This document shows positions 7,887 to 13,911 of a stretch of 64,000 nt of DNA, one piece after another. Positions within the stretch are counted from its first letter, which is position 1. Each line of letters begins with the position of its first letter. The stretch spans positions 186,001 through 250,000 of the forward strand of contig NZ_QUOK01000005.1 in NCBI RefSeq assembly GCF_003390325.1, given 5' to 3'. The notes under the pieces were generated by a model that saw only the letters and a list, made by a program, of their open reading frames with translations, was not told the origin of the DNA and did not search any database. Position numbers and translations under genes: made by a program. The DNA comes from Rhodohalobacter sp. SW132 (GTDB lineage: Bacteria; Bacteroidota; Rhodothermia; Balneolales; Balneolaceae).

Positions 7887-9095
7887 ATGAACAAAGAACT
7901 GTTTCCAAAAGAGATTATTGAAAATTCACAAGAACACAATTTTTCAATCCATTCGGTACGCTCCAGGGTCATCTACTCCACGATTGTACTTTCGCTTATC
8001 GGGATGTTTGCTCTCCTGCCATTTATCTACACGGATGTTGGTGTTCGAAGCCAGGGGATGGTCCGGCCGGTTACGGAAGTTATTCAGATCGCCTCCCCGG
8101 TGTCGGCCCAGATCACATCCCTTCAAGCAAAAGAAAACAGCCGCGTGCAAAAGGGAGATATTCTCCTCAAGCTCGATGATGCGGACATCCAGCAGCAACT
8201 GCGTTTTAACAGATCGCGTTTTGAGCAGCTATCTAATTTTATTCAAGATTTAAATACGCTAACGAAATCCGTCTCGATCCAATCTGTACCAATAGATGAC
8301 TTGAAAACCGTGCGGTTTAAACAAGAAACCTTGGAATTCCGTCAGCAACTTGAAAATCAGCAGCAGCTTATAGACCAGCAAAAAAGGCTGCTTGAACGTG
8401 AGACTAATTTGTACAATCGGGATGCCATCAGCCTGCTCTCTCTTGAGGAACGGCAGCATCAGCTTCAATTTGAAGAGAACAAATTGAAGCTGCTCACAGA
8501 GCAACAGTTCAACAGATGGAACCGGGAGAAAGACACGTTTCAGAAAGAGCGTGATGAGATTGAAGCTACATTCAATCAGCTTTCCAATGAAAAACGCCGG
8601 TATGTCATACACTCGCCCGTGACCGGCACCCTTCAAAATACAAACGGTTTGTTAGAGAACAGTTTTGTATTTGTGAACCAGGCGATCGGAGAGATATCGC
8701 CTGATACAACTTTGATAGCCGAAGTTTACGTCCTGCCAAATGAAATCGGTCTTCTCAGACCAGGATTACCCGTACGATTTCAAATTGATGCTTATGACCA
8801 CAATCAATGGGGCACGGCTACCGGAAAGATTGAAAGCATTTCAACGGATATACTCGTAAGCGAAAATACCCCGATGTTCAAAGTTCGCTGTTCGATCGAC
8901 CAAACCTATCTTGAATTGTCAAATGGTTTTAAGGGTGAAATAAAAAAAGGAATGACCTTCCAGGCCCGGTTTGTAATCAATCGAAGAAGCCTGTTTCAGC
9001 TGTTATATGATAATATGGACGATTGGCTCAATCCGTCCTGGTCTGCTACACAGGATAATAATTCCCGGCTAACTCATATAAATCAGTCATCATGA
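7887..9095 (+). CDS. HlyD-family membrane-fusion adaptor of a peptide exporter
   Basis: A 402-residue periplasmic adaptor that would link the ABC exporter to an outer-membrane channel. One N-terminal TM segment lies at about residues 30-50. A half lipoyl/barrel-sandwich segment (about 70-105) is followed by a long coiled coil rich in Gln, Glu and Leu (about 105-235), the second lipoyl half (VTGTLQNTNGLL, about 245) and a beta-barrel region. The ATG at 7887 is preferred to the TTG at 7875 because GGGAGA sits 5 nt before it. It overlaps the ABC gene by 4 nt (ATGA), so the two are translationally coupled. No TolC-like partner is present in the window; it is presumably encoded elsewhere. Confidence 0.88.
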   Translation: MNKELFPKEIIENSQEHNFSIHSVRSRVIYSTIVLSLIGMFALLPFIYTDVGVRSQGMVRPVTEVIQIASPVSAQITSLQAKENSRVQKGDILLKLDDADIQQQLRFNRSRFEQLSNFIQDLNTLTKSVSIQSVPIDDLKTVRFKQETLEFRQQLENQQQLIDQQKRLLERETNLYNRDAISLLSLEERQHQLQFEENKLKLLTEQQFNRWNREKDTFQKERDEIEATFNQLSNEKRRYVIHSPVTGTLQNTNGLLENSFVFVNQAIGEISPDTTLIAEVYVLPNEIGLLRPGLPVRFQIDAYDHNQWGTATGKIESISTDILVSENTPMFKVRCSIDQTYLELSNGFKGEIKKGMTFQARFVINRRSLFQLLYDNMDDWLNPSWSATQDNNSRLTHINQSS

Positions 9096-11284
9096 ACAAG
9101 AGAAAAATAGGTGTAAAACAGCACGATATCACCGATTGCGGAGCCGCATGCCTTGCCTCCGTTGCAGCTCACTTTGGTCTTGAGATGCCCATTTCAAAAA
9201 TTCGTCAGTACGCCTCAACCGACAAAAAAGGAACCAACATTCTTGGAATGATTGAAGCCGCTGAGGCTCTTGGCTTTTCTGCAAAAGGGGTGAAAGGTGA
9301 GTTTGAGAGTTTGTTTGAGATACCCACACCAACCATAGCCCATGTGGTTGTAAAAGAGGTTCTTCATCACTTTGTGGTTATCTATAATGCCACCGACAAA
9401 TTTATTGAAGTGATGGATCCGATGGACGGAAAGCTCCACAGAGTGCCTTACGATGAGTTCAGGAAACAGTGGACCGGTGTCCTGGTTTTAATCATGCCGG
9501 ATGAATCCTTTGTAGCCAGGAATGAAAAGCATTCCATTTTAAGCAGGCTTTGGTTCCTACTCAAGCCTCACCGAACTGTTCTGCTCCAGGCAACTGTCGG
9601 TGCGGCGGTGTTTACCCTCATCGGACTCTCTACCGCCATCTACGTTCAACTCATCGTGGATCATGTCCTTTTAGACGGCAATCGCAATCTGCTGAACCTC
9701 CTGGGTGTAGGAATGATTGCATTGGTTTTGCTGCAAATATTTATTGGAGTGGCAAAAACCGTTTTCACTCTCAAAACCGGTCAATTGATCGATGCGCGGC
9801 TCATACTGGGATACTACAAACATCTTCTTAAATTGCCCCAGCGCTTTTTTGATACGATGCGGGTTGGAGAGATTATCTCCCGGATAAATGATGCCGTAAA
9901 AATCAGAACCTTCATAAATGATGTAGCGATAAATATCATCGTCAGTATCTTTATTGTGCTTTTTTCATTCGGGTTGATGTTTACCTACTACTGGAAACTC
10001 GGGCTCGTGATGCTGGCGATCATACCGGTTTATACGCTGATCTATTTTATTACCAATCAGCTAAACAAGAAAACTCAGAGAGAGTTGATGGAAAATGCTG
10101 CTGACCTTGAATCTCAGCTGGTTGAATCCCTCAATTCAGTACGCACCATTAAGCAGTTCGGCCTTGAGAATTTTGCCAACATGAAAACTGAAACCCGATT
10201 TGTACGGTTGCTGAAGACCGTCTACAGATCAGGATTAAATTCGGTTTTTTCGGGTAACGCATCCCAGTTTTCATCGAGGGTTTTTACAATCATTCTGTTA
10301 TGGGTCGGTGCAATCTTTGTTCTTGAGGGAGACATCACCCCGGGTGAACTTCTCTCCTTCTACGCCGTCATCGGTTATTTTACCGGTCCGGTGAGTGATT
10401 TAGTTGGCATGAACAAAGTCATTCAGGATGCGATGATAGCTGCCGACCGTCTGTTTGAGATTATGGATCTTGAGAAAGAAGAGCAGGGTCAAAAAGTTGA
10501 GTTAAAAAAGGATTTCATCGGGGATATTACTTTCCGGGATATTCACTTCAGATATGGCTCAAGAGTTGATGTTTTTACAGGATTGAACCTGGTGATTCCT
10601 AAAGGAAAAGTGACTGCATTTGTGGGTGAAAGCGGATCCGGAAAAACCACACTGGTTAACATCCTCCAAAAAATGTACCCGATCGATTCCGGTCAGATCG
10701 TCATCGGAGATCTGAATATAGCTCATATCGATACACAGAGCCTTAGAGATATCATCTCAGTCGTTCCGCAAAAAATTGATCTTTTTGCAGGAAATGTGAT
10801 TGATAATATTGCCGTAGGCAGGTTTGAACCGGATATGGAAAAGATCATTACCATCTGTAAAAGACTTGGAATCCTCACCTTTATTGAAGAGTTACCCAAC
10901 GGGTTTGAAACCTACCTTGGTGAAAATGGAGCCTCTCTTTCCGGTGGCCAGAAACAGCGTATAGCCATTGCGAGAGCGCTCTACAAAGATCCCGAAATCC
11001 TTATTCTTGATGAAGCAACTTCATCACTTGATTCGGCCTCTGAGCAGTACGTTCAACAGACGATTAACTACCTGCGTGAAGAGAACAAAACCGTCATCCT
11101 GATTGCCCACCGATTAAGCACGGTTTTTATGGCGGATAAGATCTGTGTACTTGAAAACGGGGAGCTTATTGAAGAGGGAAGTCACCAGGAGCTTATCAAT
11201 CAAGGCACACTTTATCTGAAGCTGTGGAAAAACCAATTCCCATTCCTAAATGGTGATTTGAAAGGCAAAATCCTCAATATCTAA
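9092..11284 (+). CDS. Peptidase-containing ABC exporter (C39, bacteriocin type)
   Basis: A 730-residue protein that cuts double-glycine leaders and exports the core peptide. The N-terminal C39 cysteine protease domain has Q10, C16 (in TDCGAAC), H93 (LHHFVV) and D109 (VMDPMDG), so the catalytic set is intact. The TM domain spans about residues 160-440 with six helices. The nucleotide-binding domain has Walker A GESGSGKTT (about 511), signature LSGGQKQR (about 616), Walker B LILDEATSSLD (about 637) and the H-loop in IAHRLST. Two peptides with GG motifs are encoded 400-840 nt downstream and are the obvious substrates. It is a full-length member of the family. Confidence 0.93.
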   Translation: MNKRKIGVKQHDITDCGAACLASVAAHFGLEMPISKIRQYASTDKKGTNILGMIEAAEALGFSAKGVKGEFESLFEIPTPTIAHVVVKEVLHHFVVIYNATDKFIEVMDPMDGKLHRVPYDEFRKQWTGVLVLIMPDESFVARNEKHSILSRLWFLLKPHRTVLLQATVGAAVFTLIGLSTAIYVQLIVDHVLLDGNRNLLNLLGVGMIALVLLQIFIGVAKTVFTLKTGQLIDARLILGYYKHLLKLPQRFFDTMRVGEIISRINDAVKIRTFINDVAINIIVSIFIVLFSFGLMFTYYWKLGLVMLAIIPVYTLIYFITNQLNKKTQRELMENAADLESQLVESLNSVRTIKQFGLENFANMKTETRFVRLLKTVYRSGLNSVFSGNASQFSSRVFTIILLWVGAIFVLEGDITPGELLSFYAVIGYFTGPVSDLVGMNKVIQDAMIAADRLFEIMDLEKEEQGQKVELKKDFIGDITFRDIHFRYGSRVDVFTGLNLVIPKGKVTAFVGESGSGKTTLVNILQKMYPIDSGQIVIGDLNIAHIDTQSLRDIISVVPQKIDLFAGNVIDNIAVGRFEPDMEKIITICKRLGILTFIEELPNGFETYLGENGASLSGGQKQRIAIARALYKDPEILILDEATSSLDSASEQYVQQTINYLREENKTVILIAHRLSTVFMADKICVLENGELIEEGSHQELINQGTLYLKLWKNQFPFLNGDLKGKILNI

Positions 11285-11301: not shown

Positions 11302-11547
11302 ATGGCGCTATATAACTACATCAACAGAATAGAACGAATGGACACGCTAATACGCCGCAAATCTACCGGCACACCTAAAGAGCTGGCGGAAAAGCTGAAT
11401 ATTTCAGAACGCTGGCTCTATATCTTTTTAGATGAATTGAGATCTGAACTCAACTGCCCTATACGATACGACAGGAGGCAACGCAGTTACGTTTATGAAA
11501 TACCCGGCCGGGTCACCATTGGTTTTAAATCTGAAATGGTAAATTAG
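11302..11547 (+). CDS. Small helix-turn-helix protein
   Basis: An 81-residue protein 17 nt after the exporter gene, so probably in the same operon. Residues 22-60 form a winged-HTH-like unit (GTPKELAEKLNISERWLY, then a recognition helix followed by a basic hairpin RYDRRQRSYVYE). No sensor domain is present. A local regulator of the downstream peptide genes is the simplest reading; the ATCAAC/GTTGAT repeat at 11640-11656 would be a natural operator. DNA binding is inferred from the HTH pattern only. Confidence 0.7.
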   Translation: MALYNYINRIERMDTLIRRKSTGTPKELAEKLNISERWLYIFLDELRSELNCPIRYDRRQRSYVYEIPGRVTIGFKSEMVN

Positions 11548-11639
11548 GAGCTAAAAAAAGTATCCGGCGGAAGAAAATTCAAAAATTTATACTCACTGTA
11601 TTTATAGGTGCAGTGGGAAATTATATTTTTTTCATAGAA

Positions 11640-11656
11640 ATCAACTTTTGGTTGAT
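11640..11656. promoter_or_regulatory. Inverted repeat before the peptide genes
   Basis: ATCAAC (11640-11645) and GTTGAT (11651-11656) with a 5-nt spacer, 33 nt before the first peptide ORF and within an AT-rich stretch (TATTATATAAAC) that could hold the promoter. It is a candidate operator for the adjacent HTH protein. Confidence 0.4.
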
Positions 11657-11682
11657 ATTATATAAACATTAATTAAATAGTA

Positions 11683-11877
11683 ATGATTATGAGAAATATA
11701 AAATATCTAAATCATGAAAATCTCAAGAGAACTAATGGAGGTTTTGTGCCAGTAGTAATATTTGGTGTAACATATTCTGCAAAAGCTGTAGCTGGGTATT
11801 TTGGGGCTGTTACAGCAGCTTCATCTGGTATTACTTTAGCAGTAATTAATAATAATAGTGACGATAACTCTAAATAA
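11683..11877 (+). CDS. Double-glycine bacteriocin-like peptide 1
   Basis: A 64-residue precursor. The leader is MIMRNIKYLNHENLKRTNGG (20 residues, or 18 from the second ATG at 11689), ending in GG, the cut site of C39 exporters. The core is 44 residues. It is hydrophobic and rich in Gly, Ala and Val, has several small-xxx-small spacings (A17/G21, A25/G29 of the core) and ends in a hydrophilic NNNSDDNSK tail. It contains no Cys, so no thioether or disulfide is possible. The composition and the second peptide directly downstream (7-nt gap) fit a class IIb (two-peptide) bacteriocin or a related secreted signal. Activity is inferred. Confidence 0.75.
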   Translation: MIMRNIKYLNHENLKRTNGGFVPVVIFGVTYSAKAVAGYFGAVTAASSGITLAVINNNSDDNSK

Positions 11878-11884
11878 AATAATC

Positions 11885-12121
11885 ATGAATACTGCAATAA
11901 AACTACCCAATAATATAAAAGCGAATAATCCTAATAACAATCTTTCACTTTTAGATGATAATGAGTTAAAATCCATAAATGGTGGAGCAAAACCAGTTGC
12001 ACCTCTTTTTGGGTGGAAAGCTGCTGCACTATTAGTTGGCGGAACAGGCGCTGCAATAATTGTTGGCGTCGCAGGCACATACCTCTTATATAAAGGAGTT
12101 GAATATTTATTAACTGATTAA
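11885..12121 (+). CDS. Double-glycine bacteriocin-like peptide 2
   Basis: A 78-residue precursor from the ATG at 11885 (a GTG at 11858 is also open). The leader is 34 residues and ends LLDDNELKSINGG, with the hydrophobic spacing typical of GG leaders. The core is 44 residues, the same length as that of peptide 1. It has a Trp at core position 10 and a glycine-rich TM-like helix (LLVGGTGAAIIVGVAG). No Cys is present. Small-xxx-small spacings would allow helix-helix pairing with peptide 1. It lies between peptide 1 and a strong hairpin, so the two peptides are probably made in similar amounts. Confidence 0.78.
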   Translation: MNTAIKLPNNIKANNPNNNLSLLDDNELKSINGGAKPVAPLFGWKAAALLVGGTGAAIIVGVAGTYLLYKGVEYLLTD

Positions 12122-12127
12122 ATTTAA

Positions 12128-12153
12128 CCGGTGCAGCGACAGCGTTGCACCGG
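12128..12153 (+). promoter_or_regulatory. Strong hairpin between peptide 2 and the membrane zincin
   Basis: CCGGTGCAGCG and CGTTGCACCGG form an 11-bp stem (one G-U pair) with a 4-nt loop, ending 11 nt before the ATG of the next gene. No T-run follows, so it is not a classical terminator. It could stabilise the upstream peptide mRNA, act as a partial terminator, or limit translation of the protease. Confidence 0.6.
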
Positions 12154-12164
12154 GATACTTGATT

Positions 12165-12758
12165 ATGGAAAAAATAGCAAAGACAAATTCTACAGTTGAT
12201 ATAGATATCGACGAAATACCAAAAATGAGCATCCGAATTCTACTAATTTTGATTTTTATTGTCTTTCTGCCATATCTATTAATTCATGGAAGTGATTTAA
12301 GAGAAGAAATAACAATTTTAAGTCAATTACTTGATGCTTCATTCTTTTCATTCCTGTTTAGGATGGTATTGGTTGGCACAGCATTTGTTGCGGTTTCGAT
12401 ATTAGGCATTTTGATTCATGAAGCTATACATGCAGTGTTTTTCTCTCTTTATTTACCGTCAAAATTCCATGGAGTTAAATTCGGTTTTAACAACGAACAT
12501 GGAATACCTTATGTCCACATCTTAGAACCGATTAGTGTTCTGGGTTTCAGAATTGGAGCAGTCATGCCCCTGATAATTTTAGGAATTACCCCGGTCACAC
12601 TTGGTTTGTACATGGGAAGCCTTAGTCTAACGGCTTTTGGAGCATTATTTACAATTAGCGCAAGCGGAGACCTTCTCTTAATTGCAAGAACAAAAGGATT
12701 ACCATCTGACCAGAAGTTAAAAGACCTTTCTGATAGGATTGGTTTTGAGGTTCTTTAG
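12165..12758 (+). CDS. DUF3267-type membrane zincin
   Basis: A 197-residue integral membrane protein with HEAIH (about residues 85-89) inside a hydrophobic helix, the zinc motif of DUF3267 putative metalloproteases. TM segments lie at about 25-43, 65-90, 120-140 and 145-165; the segment YVHILEPISVLGFR (about 111-124) between them may complete the active site. The ATG at 12165 is preferred to a TTG two codons upstream. Its position after two GG peptides suggests processing, maturation or self-protection. The frame stops at TAG 12756-12758, directly after CTT. A +1 shift there would add a TM tail (see the next feature and the findings). Confidence 0.75.
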   Translation: MEKIAKTNSTVDIDIDEIPKMSIRILLILIFIVFLPYLLIHGSDLREEITILSQLLDASFFSFLFRMVLVGTAFVAVSILGILIHEAIHAVFFSLYLPSKFHGVKFGFNNEHGIPYVHILEPISVLGFRIGAVMPLIILGITPVTLGLYMGSLSLTAFGALFTISASGDLLLIARTKGLPSDQKLKDLSDRIGFEVL

Positions 12759-12897
12759 ACCAAAAATCTTAAAAAATGCCGAAAAACCAGATTTTAGGGA
12801 GATTGCCATACTTGCGATTACAATTTTCATATTTACAATTGTGGTCAGGAATTGGCCAGCGATCAAGCAGTTTATTTATAGTCTGAGTTTCTTGTAA
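12745..12897 (+). pseudogene. TM-peptide ORF in +1 frame after the zincin (copy A)
   Basis: An open frame of 50 codons overlaps the end of the zincin gene. It has no ATG; TTG 12745 is the only plausible start. It encodes a basic stretch then one TM helix (ITIFIFTIVVRNW). Its sequence is conserved with the ORF at 13795-13911, with mostly conservative codon changes, so it was coding at some time. Options: a decayed gene that lost its start, a TTG-started overlapping gene, or the C-terminus of the zincin reached by +1 slippage at CTT-TAG-A. Confidence 0.45.
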
Positions 12898-13079: not shown

Positions 13080-13289
13080 ATGCTTTACCCACCAGATTAT
13101 CAATACATAAATATTTACATTATAATTATTTTTACTTCATTAGCTATTGGAGTTATTTTACAAAAATCAGTTGACAAAAATGACCCTGAGAACTCACTAA
13201 ATAAGTACAAGAGATATACAGCTAATCTTTTTTTTACTATAACTATTTTATCGACGGCATACTTTATGGTATTACCGCTTTACTTGTGA
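13080..13289 (+). CDS. Small two-TM protein, candidate immunity protein
   Basis: A 69-residue ORF from ATG 13080. Two TM helices (about residues 8-25, YINIYIIIIFTSLAIGV, and 48-66) flank a charged loop (KSVDKNDPENSLNKYKR). No family is recognised. Small membrane proteins beside GG-peptide genes are often the cognate immunity proteins, so this is the best immunity candidate, together with the ORF at 13571. Very AT-rich, as are its neighbours. No clear Shine-Dalgarno. Confidence 0.5.
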   Translation: MLYPPDYQYINIYIIIIFTSLAIGVILQKSVDKNDPENSLNKYKRYTANLFFTITILSTAYFMVLPLYL

Positions 13290-13570: not shown

Positions 13571-13747
13571 ATGAAAATAATAAAATCAAAATACTTTATT
13601 GTTACTACTATATACATTATATATTCTATTTATTATTTAATTACAAGGGATGATTTTACATATAAAATTATTGAAAGCACTGCTATTTACTTCGTGCTTT
13701 TAATCGTATTTTTTCTATACGATAAATATTATAAAAATGGCGTTTAA
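13571..13747 (+). CDS. Small two-TM protein, candidate immunity protein
   Basis: Fifty-eight residues from ATG 13571; the open frame extends 12 codons upstream to an alternative start. Two TM helices (about residues 7-22 and 36-52) separated by a short polar loop TRDDFTYK, with a basic C-terminus. Extremely rich in Ile and Tyr and encoded by very AT-rich DNA. No family is recognised. The context after two GG peptides and the size suggest a second immunity-type protein, but this is inference. Confidence 0.45.
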   Translation: MKIIKSKYFIVTTIYIIYSIYYLITRDDFTYKIIESTAIYFVLLIVFFLYDKYYKNGV

Positions 13748-13794: not shown

Positions 13795-13911
13795 ATGAAA
13801 AATGCCAAAAAAACAGATCTCAGGGATTTAGTCATACTCACGATTACAATTTTCATATTTACCCTCGTGACCAGGAATTGGCCTGTGATCAAGCAGTTTA
13901 TTTTAACTTGA
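13795..13911 (+). CDS. Tiny single-TM peptide (copy B)
   Basis: Thirty-eight residues from ATG 13795: a charged start (MKNAKKTDLRD), one TM helix (LVILTITIFIFTLVTRNW) and a short tail. It is a diverged copy of the frame at 12745-12897. The retained reading frame and mostly conservative differences argue that the peptide is or was translated. The function is unknown; a role in immunity or as a membrane partner of the zincin is possible. Confidence 0.4.
   Translation: MKNAKKTDLRDLVILTITIFIFTLVTRNWPVIKQFILT

What the first reader, a model, noticed from the sequence alone, without database searches (positions are those of the whole stretch)
11683..12758. Two-peptide GG cassette with equal 44-residue cores and a membrane zincin
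Two adjacent ORFs have different GG leaders (18-20 and 34 residues) but cores of 44 residues each, no Cys, and small-xxx-small helix motifs. The upstream exporter has an intact C39 triad. A DUF3267-type HEAIH membrane protein follows. The equal core lengths and helix motifs suggest an obligate pair. The zincin could trim the peptides, act in immunity, or clear leader peptides. Two-peptide bacteriocins are well known in Firmicutes; this architecture in a Balneolota-like genome seems less described.
Basis: partly seen in the sequence, partly recalled or inferred. Interest (0 to 1): 0.62.

Follow-up and report, generated by a model that had tools for sequence, protein, structure and literature searches.

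The report
Paired bacteriocin peptides with membrane protease
Two small secreted peptides, probably halves of a two-part antibacterial toxin, sit beside their exporter and a membrane-embedded zinc protease that most likely protects the producer; the same trio recurs in related bacteria, where the protease occupies the place usually held by an unrelated protease family linked to self-protection.

Summary
pepA (64 aa) and pepB (78 aa) are the only two GG-leader ORFs in the window (0.005 expected by chance) and the only Bacteriocin_IIc (PF10439) matches in the 5.08 Mb genome. They follow HlyD, the genome's only full C39-ABC exporter (triad C16/H93/D109) and an HTH protein. The HEAIH protein is PF11667/DUF3267 with S2P-clan residues.

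The cassette recurs. GG pairs followed by a DUF3267 protein occur in G415 and G359 (same gene order), G396 (orthologous pair, no local exporter), and G316 and G025. In 394 genomes of the phylum, 5 of 39 DUF3267 genes lie within 6 kb of a C39 exporter, against 0.11 expected (P about 1e-7). In G270 the orthologous pair is followed by a CPBP (PF02517) intramembrane protease instead. I therefore read the zincin as an immunity protein in the slot usually filled by CPBP/Abi. Maturation is the main rival: a DUF3267 protease (TmcP) was recently shown to remove a bacteriocin leader.

The equal 44-residue cores are not conserved (orthologues 39/38, 40/43) and do not show pairing.

Separately: the HTH regulator family ends in a C39-like motif plus a tail, cut off in the window by an in-frame TAG.

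The parts
7887..9095 (+). HlyD-type membrane fusion protein of the exporter
   Evidence: PF13437 E 1.3e-15; orthologues beside C39 in most sister loci
9092..11284 (+). C39 peptidase-ABC exporter (PCAT type), triad C16/H93/D109, intact Walker A/B and signature
   Evidence: PF03412 3.1e-33, TIGR01193 524.6 bits vs cutoff 523.85; aligned with PCAT1 4RY2 E 3e-37; triad positions
11302..11547 (+). HTH regulator, 81 aa; most relatives run further and end in a C39-like GG motif plus tail
   Evidence: HTH_11-like, below Pfam cutoff; orthologues 37-75% identical beside the same exporter
11548..11607 (+). in-frame remnant of the HTH C-terminal tail (ELKKVSGG|RKFKNLYSLYL) behind the TAG at 11545-11547
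   Evidence: (match 1-100 with 1 TAG inside)
11638..11658 (.). imperfect inverted repeat AAATCAAC-TTTTG-GTTGATAT upstream of pepA; possible operator, weak
   Evidence: comparable repeats at the same place in L122 and L088 only
11683..11877 (+). pepA precursor: leader 20 aa (11683-11742), core 44 aa (11743-11874)
   Evidence: orthologues in L121, L081
11885..12121 (+). pepB precursor: leader 34 aa (11885-11986), core 44 aa (11987-12118)
   Evidence: PF10439 over cutoff; orthologues in L121, L081
12165..12758 (+). DUF3267 membrane zincin, HEAIH 85-89, P135, G168-D169
   Evidence: PF11667 3.5e-16; invariant H85 E86 H89 P135 D169; tree
12757..12897 (+). small one-helix ORF directly after the zincin (no ATG; TTG at 12739 possible); candidate accessory or immunity peptide
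   Evidence: 68% identical to the copy at 13795
13795..13911 (+). second copy of the small one-helix ORF, 38 aa with ATG

Best explanation
This is a class IIb-like two-peptide bacteriocin locus of a Gram-negative bacterium. The C39 domain of the exporter cuts both precursors after GG and, with HlyD, exports two hydrophobic, Cys-free helical cores that act together on the membrane of competitors. The DUF3267 protein is an S2P-type intramembrane metalloprotease. It stands in the place that other loci of this exporter family give to CPBP/Abi proteases, and it most likely makes the producer immune by cutting or displacing peptides that insert into its own inner membrane. Shown here: the genes, motifs, recurrence, and the CPBP/DUF3267 exchange at orthologous pairs. 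Inferred: bacteriocin activity, the need for both peptides, and immunity by proteolysis.
For: Only two PF10439 matches and one full C39 exporter in the genome. GG-pair then DUF3267, same strand, in the window, G415, G396, G359, G316 and G025. DUF3267 near C39: 5 of 39 vs 0.11 expected. Peptides of G359, G316 and G025 pass the class IIb model TIGR03949. Bacteriocin-linked zincins form a supported four-member clade in the window's family (100/99), including the window; the label clusters on the tree, 0 of 500 shuffles as low. Orthologous pepA/pepB in G270 are followed by a PF02517 CPBP protease instead; GG peptides with CPBP also in G359 (second unit), L103 and L106. No single pair was seen with both proteases. 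CAAX/CPBP proteins are reported as bacteriocin self-immunity factors (reviewed in PMC9298176). Leader removal is already covered by C39, and sister pairs on the same exporter lack the zincin.
Against: pepA and pepB score below the TIGR03949 cutoff (17.1, 20.0 vs 21.5) and lack GxxxG. A DUF3267 protease, TmcP, is shown to be a leader peptidase, not an immunity factor (PMC13252029). CPBP proteins in bacteriocin loci are not always immunity proteins (SilX, PMC9298176). Other small membrane ORFs downstream (12757-12897, 13080-13289, 13574-13747, 13795-13911) could be the immunity genes. Many sister loci have neither protease.
Confidence: 0.57

Rival explanations
1. The zincin is a maturation protease. 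It makes a second cut in the peptides (trimming or releasing them in the membrane) in addition to C39, as TmcP does for TMcin.
For: TmcP, a DUF3267 protease of a bacteriocin cluster, removes the precursor leader in the membrane (PMC13252029). The zincin always lies downstream of the pair on the same strand.
Against: C39 already supplies leader cleavage at GG; close sister pairs (G270) do without the zincin and have CPBP. TMcin export uses TmcBC and its precursor has a conserved Cys pair; here there is no Cys, and no TmcE or DsbA homologue was recognised nearby.
Confidence: 0.22
2. The zincin clears cut leader peptides or mis-inserted precursors from the membrane, a housekeeping role within the locus.
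For: S2P-clan proteases elsewhere degrade remnant signal peptides (general knowledge). Strong linkage to secreted peptides.
Against: The leaders are hydrophilic and are cut on the cytoplasmic side by C39, so they need no intramembrane protease; replacement by CPBP is better explained by immunity.
Confidence: 0.08
3. The immunity function lies in the small one- or two-helix ORFs downstream, and the zincin is accessory.
For: Duplicated 38-46 aa one-helix ORFs at 12757-12897 and 13795-13911; other small membrane ORFs near zincins in G025 and G415.
Against: These small ORFs are not conserved with the pair (only weak hits elsewhere, which lie within conserved coding genes in L124/L125), and the first copy has no ATG.
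Confidence: 0.15
4. The peptides are independent one-peptide bacteriocins or secreted signals, not an obligate pair.
For: GG peptides of this exporter family occur singly, in triplets and in large arrays (L111) as well as in pairs.
Against: pepA and pepB orthologues stay adjacent in the same order in G396 and G270; sister peptides pass class IIb models.
Confidence: 0.2

Closest known systems
Class IIb two-peptide bacteriocins (NCBIfam TIGR03949 lactobin A/cerein 7B; Pfam PF10439)
   Same: Two adjacent GG-leader genes, Cys-free Gly/Ala-rich cores, own C39-ABC exporter and accessory protein
   Different: Gram-negative host with HlyD; window peptides fall under the TIGR03949 cutoff; no GxxxG in the window cores; DUF3267 neighbour
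CPBP/Abi immunity proteases of bacteriocin loci (PF02517)
   Same: Membrane metalloprotease gene after the peptide pair; the two families exchange at orthologous pairs
   Different: DUF3267 is a different family (HExxH plus distal Asp, S2P clan); no PF02517 match
TmcP of TMcin clusters (DUF3267; PMC13252029)
   Same: Same Pfam family, HExxH plus distal Asp and Pro, in an antibacterial peptide cluster
   Different: TmcP removes the leader of a membrane-anchored, disulfide-bonded peptide exported by TmcBC; here C39 does the GG cut and there is no Cys
Bacteroidetocins
   Same: Antibacterial peptides of the phylum Bacteroidetes (PMC6671954)
   Different: Related to class IIa bacteriocins (abstract); not compared with pepA/pepB by sequence here
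PCAT1 / ComA C39-ABC transporters
   Same: C39 domain and triad aligned
   Different: Works with an HlyD partner across two membranes

Membership tests
Class IIb bacteriocin | two adjacent precursor genes with GG leaders | tested here: met
   conserved in G396, G270, G415, G359, G316, G025
Class IIb bacteriocin | passes curated family model TIGR03949 or PF10439 | tested here: inconclusive
   pepB passes PF10439 (27.8 vs 27.1); both under TIGR03949 (17.1, 20.0 vs 21.5); peptides in G359, G316, G025 pass TIGR03949
Class IIb bacteriocin | GxxxG or GxxxG-like helix motifs in both peptides | tested here: inconclusive
   no GxxxG; small-xxx-small p 0.009 (pepA), 0.09 (pepB)
Class IIb bacteriocin | dedicated C39-ABC exporter | tested here: met
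   only full C39 in the genome, just upstream of the HTH gene and the pair
Class IIb bacteriocin | both peptides needed for activity | not testable with these tools
   needs synthetic peptides
DUF3267 / S2P clan protease | HExxH, distal Asp, conserved Pro | tested here: met
   H85 E86 H89 P135 G168 D169 invariant in 8 sequences; PF11667 60 bits vs 27.1
DUF3267 / S2P clan protease | S2P-like fold | tested here: inconclusive
   shallow-alignment model pLDDT 68, pTM 0.61; Foldseek on PDB gave nothing
CPBP/Abi immunity protein | PF02517 domain | tested here: not met
   no PF02517 hit for the window zincin
TMcin cluster | precursor with Cys pair and TmcB/C/E/D partners | tested here: not met
   cores have no Cys; neighbours are HlyD, C39-ABC and HTH
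PCAT-type C39 exporter | C39 triad, ABC membrane and ATPase domains in one chain | tested here: met

The most novel reading that the evidence does not exclude
DUF3267 proteins form a second, unrelated class of intramembrane-protease immunity for two-peptide bacteriocins, interchangeable with CPBP/Abi and acting by cutting the incoming helices. In addition, the exporter's C39 domain may read the locus regulator, because the HTH family ends in a C39-type motif (phi-12, acidic or Gln at -8, phi-4, GG) plus a short tail; exporter activity would then be coupled to transcription. In the window this tail is lost behind a TAG.
Probability: 0.3. Interest if true: 0.75.

Novelty: new variant of a known kind. 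Interest (0 to 1): 0.55.

Why it matters
DUF3267 was an uncharacterised zincin family until one member was shown in 2026 to process a bacteriocin. Its repeated place beside two-peptide bacteriocins, where CPBP proteases otherwise sit, gives the family a second testable role and a ready-made comparison: the same pair with either protease. It also makes testable how intramembrane proteases protect bacteriocin producers.

Tried and rejected
Equal core lengths as evidence of pairing: rejected, not conserved in orthologues. The genome's second DUF3267 gene (C1) as part of the system: rejected, no GG peptide or C39 nearby. Plasmid carriage: one Prevotella plasmid hit, without bacteriocin genes. Genome-contig scan with the zincin: two distant hits, neither with a C39 exporter in the DNA held. 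Fold comparison of the zincin: model too weak, no PDB match; profile search of PDB sequences, none. sORF homologues in G163 and G054: weak hits lying within conserved coding genes in both genomes, taken as chance. Conserved operator upstream of pepA: inverted repeats seen in window, L122 and L088, not in the other loci. bacteriocin_sig model on the HTH tails: no match, so that claim rests on the aligned motif alone.

Full report
Observation. Two short ORFs, pepA (11683-11877) and pepB (11885-12121), carry GG leaders of 20 and 34 residues and cores of 44 residues each. They are the only 2 of 164 ATG ORFs of 40-100 aa in the window that pass a GG-leader plus hydrophobic-core test, with 0.005 expected after shuffling. 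They are also the only matches to Pfam PF10439 in the whole 5.08 Mb genome at E up to 1. pepB passes the curated cutoff; pepA does not. pepB has the textbook leader pattern (L-12, E-8, L-7, I-4, GG); pepA keeps L-12 and L-7.

Exporter. Upstream lie HlyD (7887-9095) and a C39-ABC exporter (9092-11284) that passes TIGR01193, with C16, H93 and D109 aligned to PCAT1. It is the only C39 over the cutoff in this genome, so if these precursors are processed by C39, this is the enzyme.

Zincin. The protein at 12165-12758 is PF11667/DUF3267. HEAIH, P135 and G168-D169 are invariant in an eight-sequence alignment; HExxH with a distal Asp and Pro are the residues named as S2P-clan hallmarks of DUF3267 in PMC13252029. 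An AlphaFold2 model from three sequences was of moderate quality and matched nothing in the PDB, so the fold was not confirmed here.

Recurrence. I searched 394 genomes of the phylum for the zincin, PF11667 and PF03412, fetched neighbourhoods and scanned them. 34 genomes hold 39 DUF3267 genes over the cutoff; five lie within 6 kb of a C39 exporter, against 0.11 expected (P 1e-7; relatedness not corrected, G316 and G025 share a genus). A search of the window's family added G396 and G415. G415 has HlyD-C39-HTH-GG-GG-126aa-185aa-zincin, G359 has HlyD-C39-TolC-like-HTH-GG-GG-54aa-zincin, and G316 and G025 have GG-GG-x-zincin-81aa-HlyD-C39. G396 has orthologues of pepA and pepB followed by the zincin with no exporter nearby, although a C39 gene exists elsewhere in that genome. 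G332 has the zincin beside a C39 exporter of another type, and no GG peptide was recognised. In a tree of 29 DUF3267 proteins the zincins of the window, G332, G415 and G396 form a clade supported at 100/99; those of G359, G316 and G025 group weakly. The linkage has therefore lasted while the zincins diverged to about 40% identity.

Slot exchange. In G270 the orthologues of pepA and pepB (L081 2430-2239 and 2061-1831) are followed by a 103-aa membrane protein and a CPBP protease (PF02517, E 1.6e-8), not by a DUF3267 protein. G359 carries a second GG pair, lactococcin G-like in weak matches, followed by CPBP. L103 and L106 have GG peptides with CPBP. No single pair was seen with both. CPBP/CAAX proteins have been reported as immunity factors, processing proteases or receptors in bacteriocin systems (PMC9298176). 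Two unrelated intramembrane metalloprotease families in one position suggests one shared task. Because the GG cut is provided by C39 and sister pairs lack the zincin, I favour immunity over maturation. TmcP shows that a DUF3267 protease can act in maturation (PMC13252029), so this stays a ranking, not a demonstration. The sample of loci was partly chosen for the presence of DUF3267, so the relative frequency of the two proteases is not estimated.

The pair. Orthologous cores measure 39 and 38 (G396), 40 and 43 (G270), 40 and 39 (G415), 31 and 36 (G359), and 20-26 in G316 and G025. The equality in the window is coincidence. Better evidence for a pair is that pepA and pepB stay adjacent and in order with recognisable similarity in G396 and G270, and that peptides in G359, G316 and G025 pass the class IIb model TIGR03949.

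Regulator. The HTH protein at 11302-11547 belongs to a family most of whose members run 20 residues or more further. In 21 relatives the end shows hydrophobic -12 (95%), mostly Glu/Asp/Gln at -8, hydrophobic -4 (100%) and [GA]G, then a tail of 11-31 residues, with one tail cut off directly after GG. This resembles the C39 leader pattern. Eight proteins not used in the profile alignment kept it; four more distant or truncated relatives (L147-L150) did not. In the window the tail is in frame behind a TAG (11545-11547), where G415 has Trp; the profile match runs through that stop. No curated bacteriocin-signal model matched the tails, and a short literature search found no description. I report it as a lead.

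Literature. Held papers that name DUF3267 with bacteriocins are the TMcin preprint and one unrelated staphylococcal genome paper. I found no description of DUF3267 in two-peptide bacteriocin loci, within an open-access library only.

Noticed in passing
window 11302-11607; L122 5873-6178; L088 1215-1520 (-); L051 6531-6851; L143: Small HTH regulators encoded with this exporter family end in a C39-leader-like motif (phi-12, E/D/Q-8, phi-4, [GA]G) followed by a tail of 11-31 aa; the exporter's protease might cut the regulator. In the window the tail lies in frame behind a TAG.
   Followed up: partly
window 12757-12897 and 13795-13911: Duplicated one-helix ORF (68% identical) after the zincin; the first copy lacks ATG. 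No convincing homologues in 92 genomes of the family.
   Followed up: partly
L121 8035-9123: G396: pepA-pepB-zincin cassette with no exporter nearby; the genome's single C39 gene is on another contig.
   Followed up: partly
L111 9004-12170: Tandem array of about 18 GG-leader peptide genes, many nearly identical, upstream of the same exporter type.
   Followed up: no
L037 1604-5403: G332: zincin of the window's clade beside a different C39-ABC exporter (30% identical), a thioredoxin-like ORF and a 131-aa membrane protein resembling the 185-aa one in L122; no peptide recognised.
   Followed up: partly
L142: HTH regulator in G245 with TAA directly after its GG, the usual tail readable behind it; a second case of tail loss.
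   Followed up: no
L003 8228-8893: Second DUF3267 paralogue (HELLH) in the window's own genome, next to ABC transporter genes, without GG peptides.
   Followed up: yes
window 11638-11658: Imperfect inverted repeat just upstream of pepA; similar repeats at the same place in L122 and L088; possible operator.
   Followed up: partly
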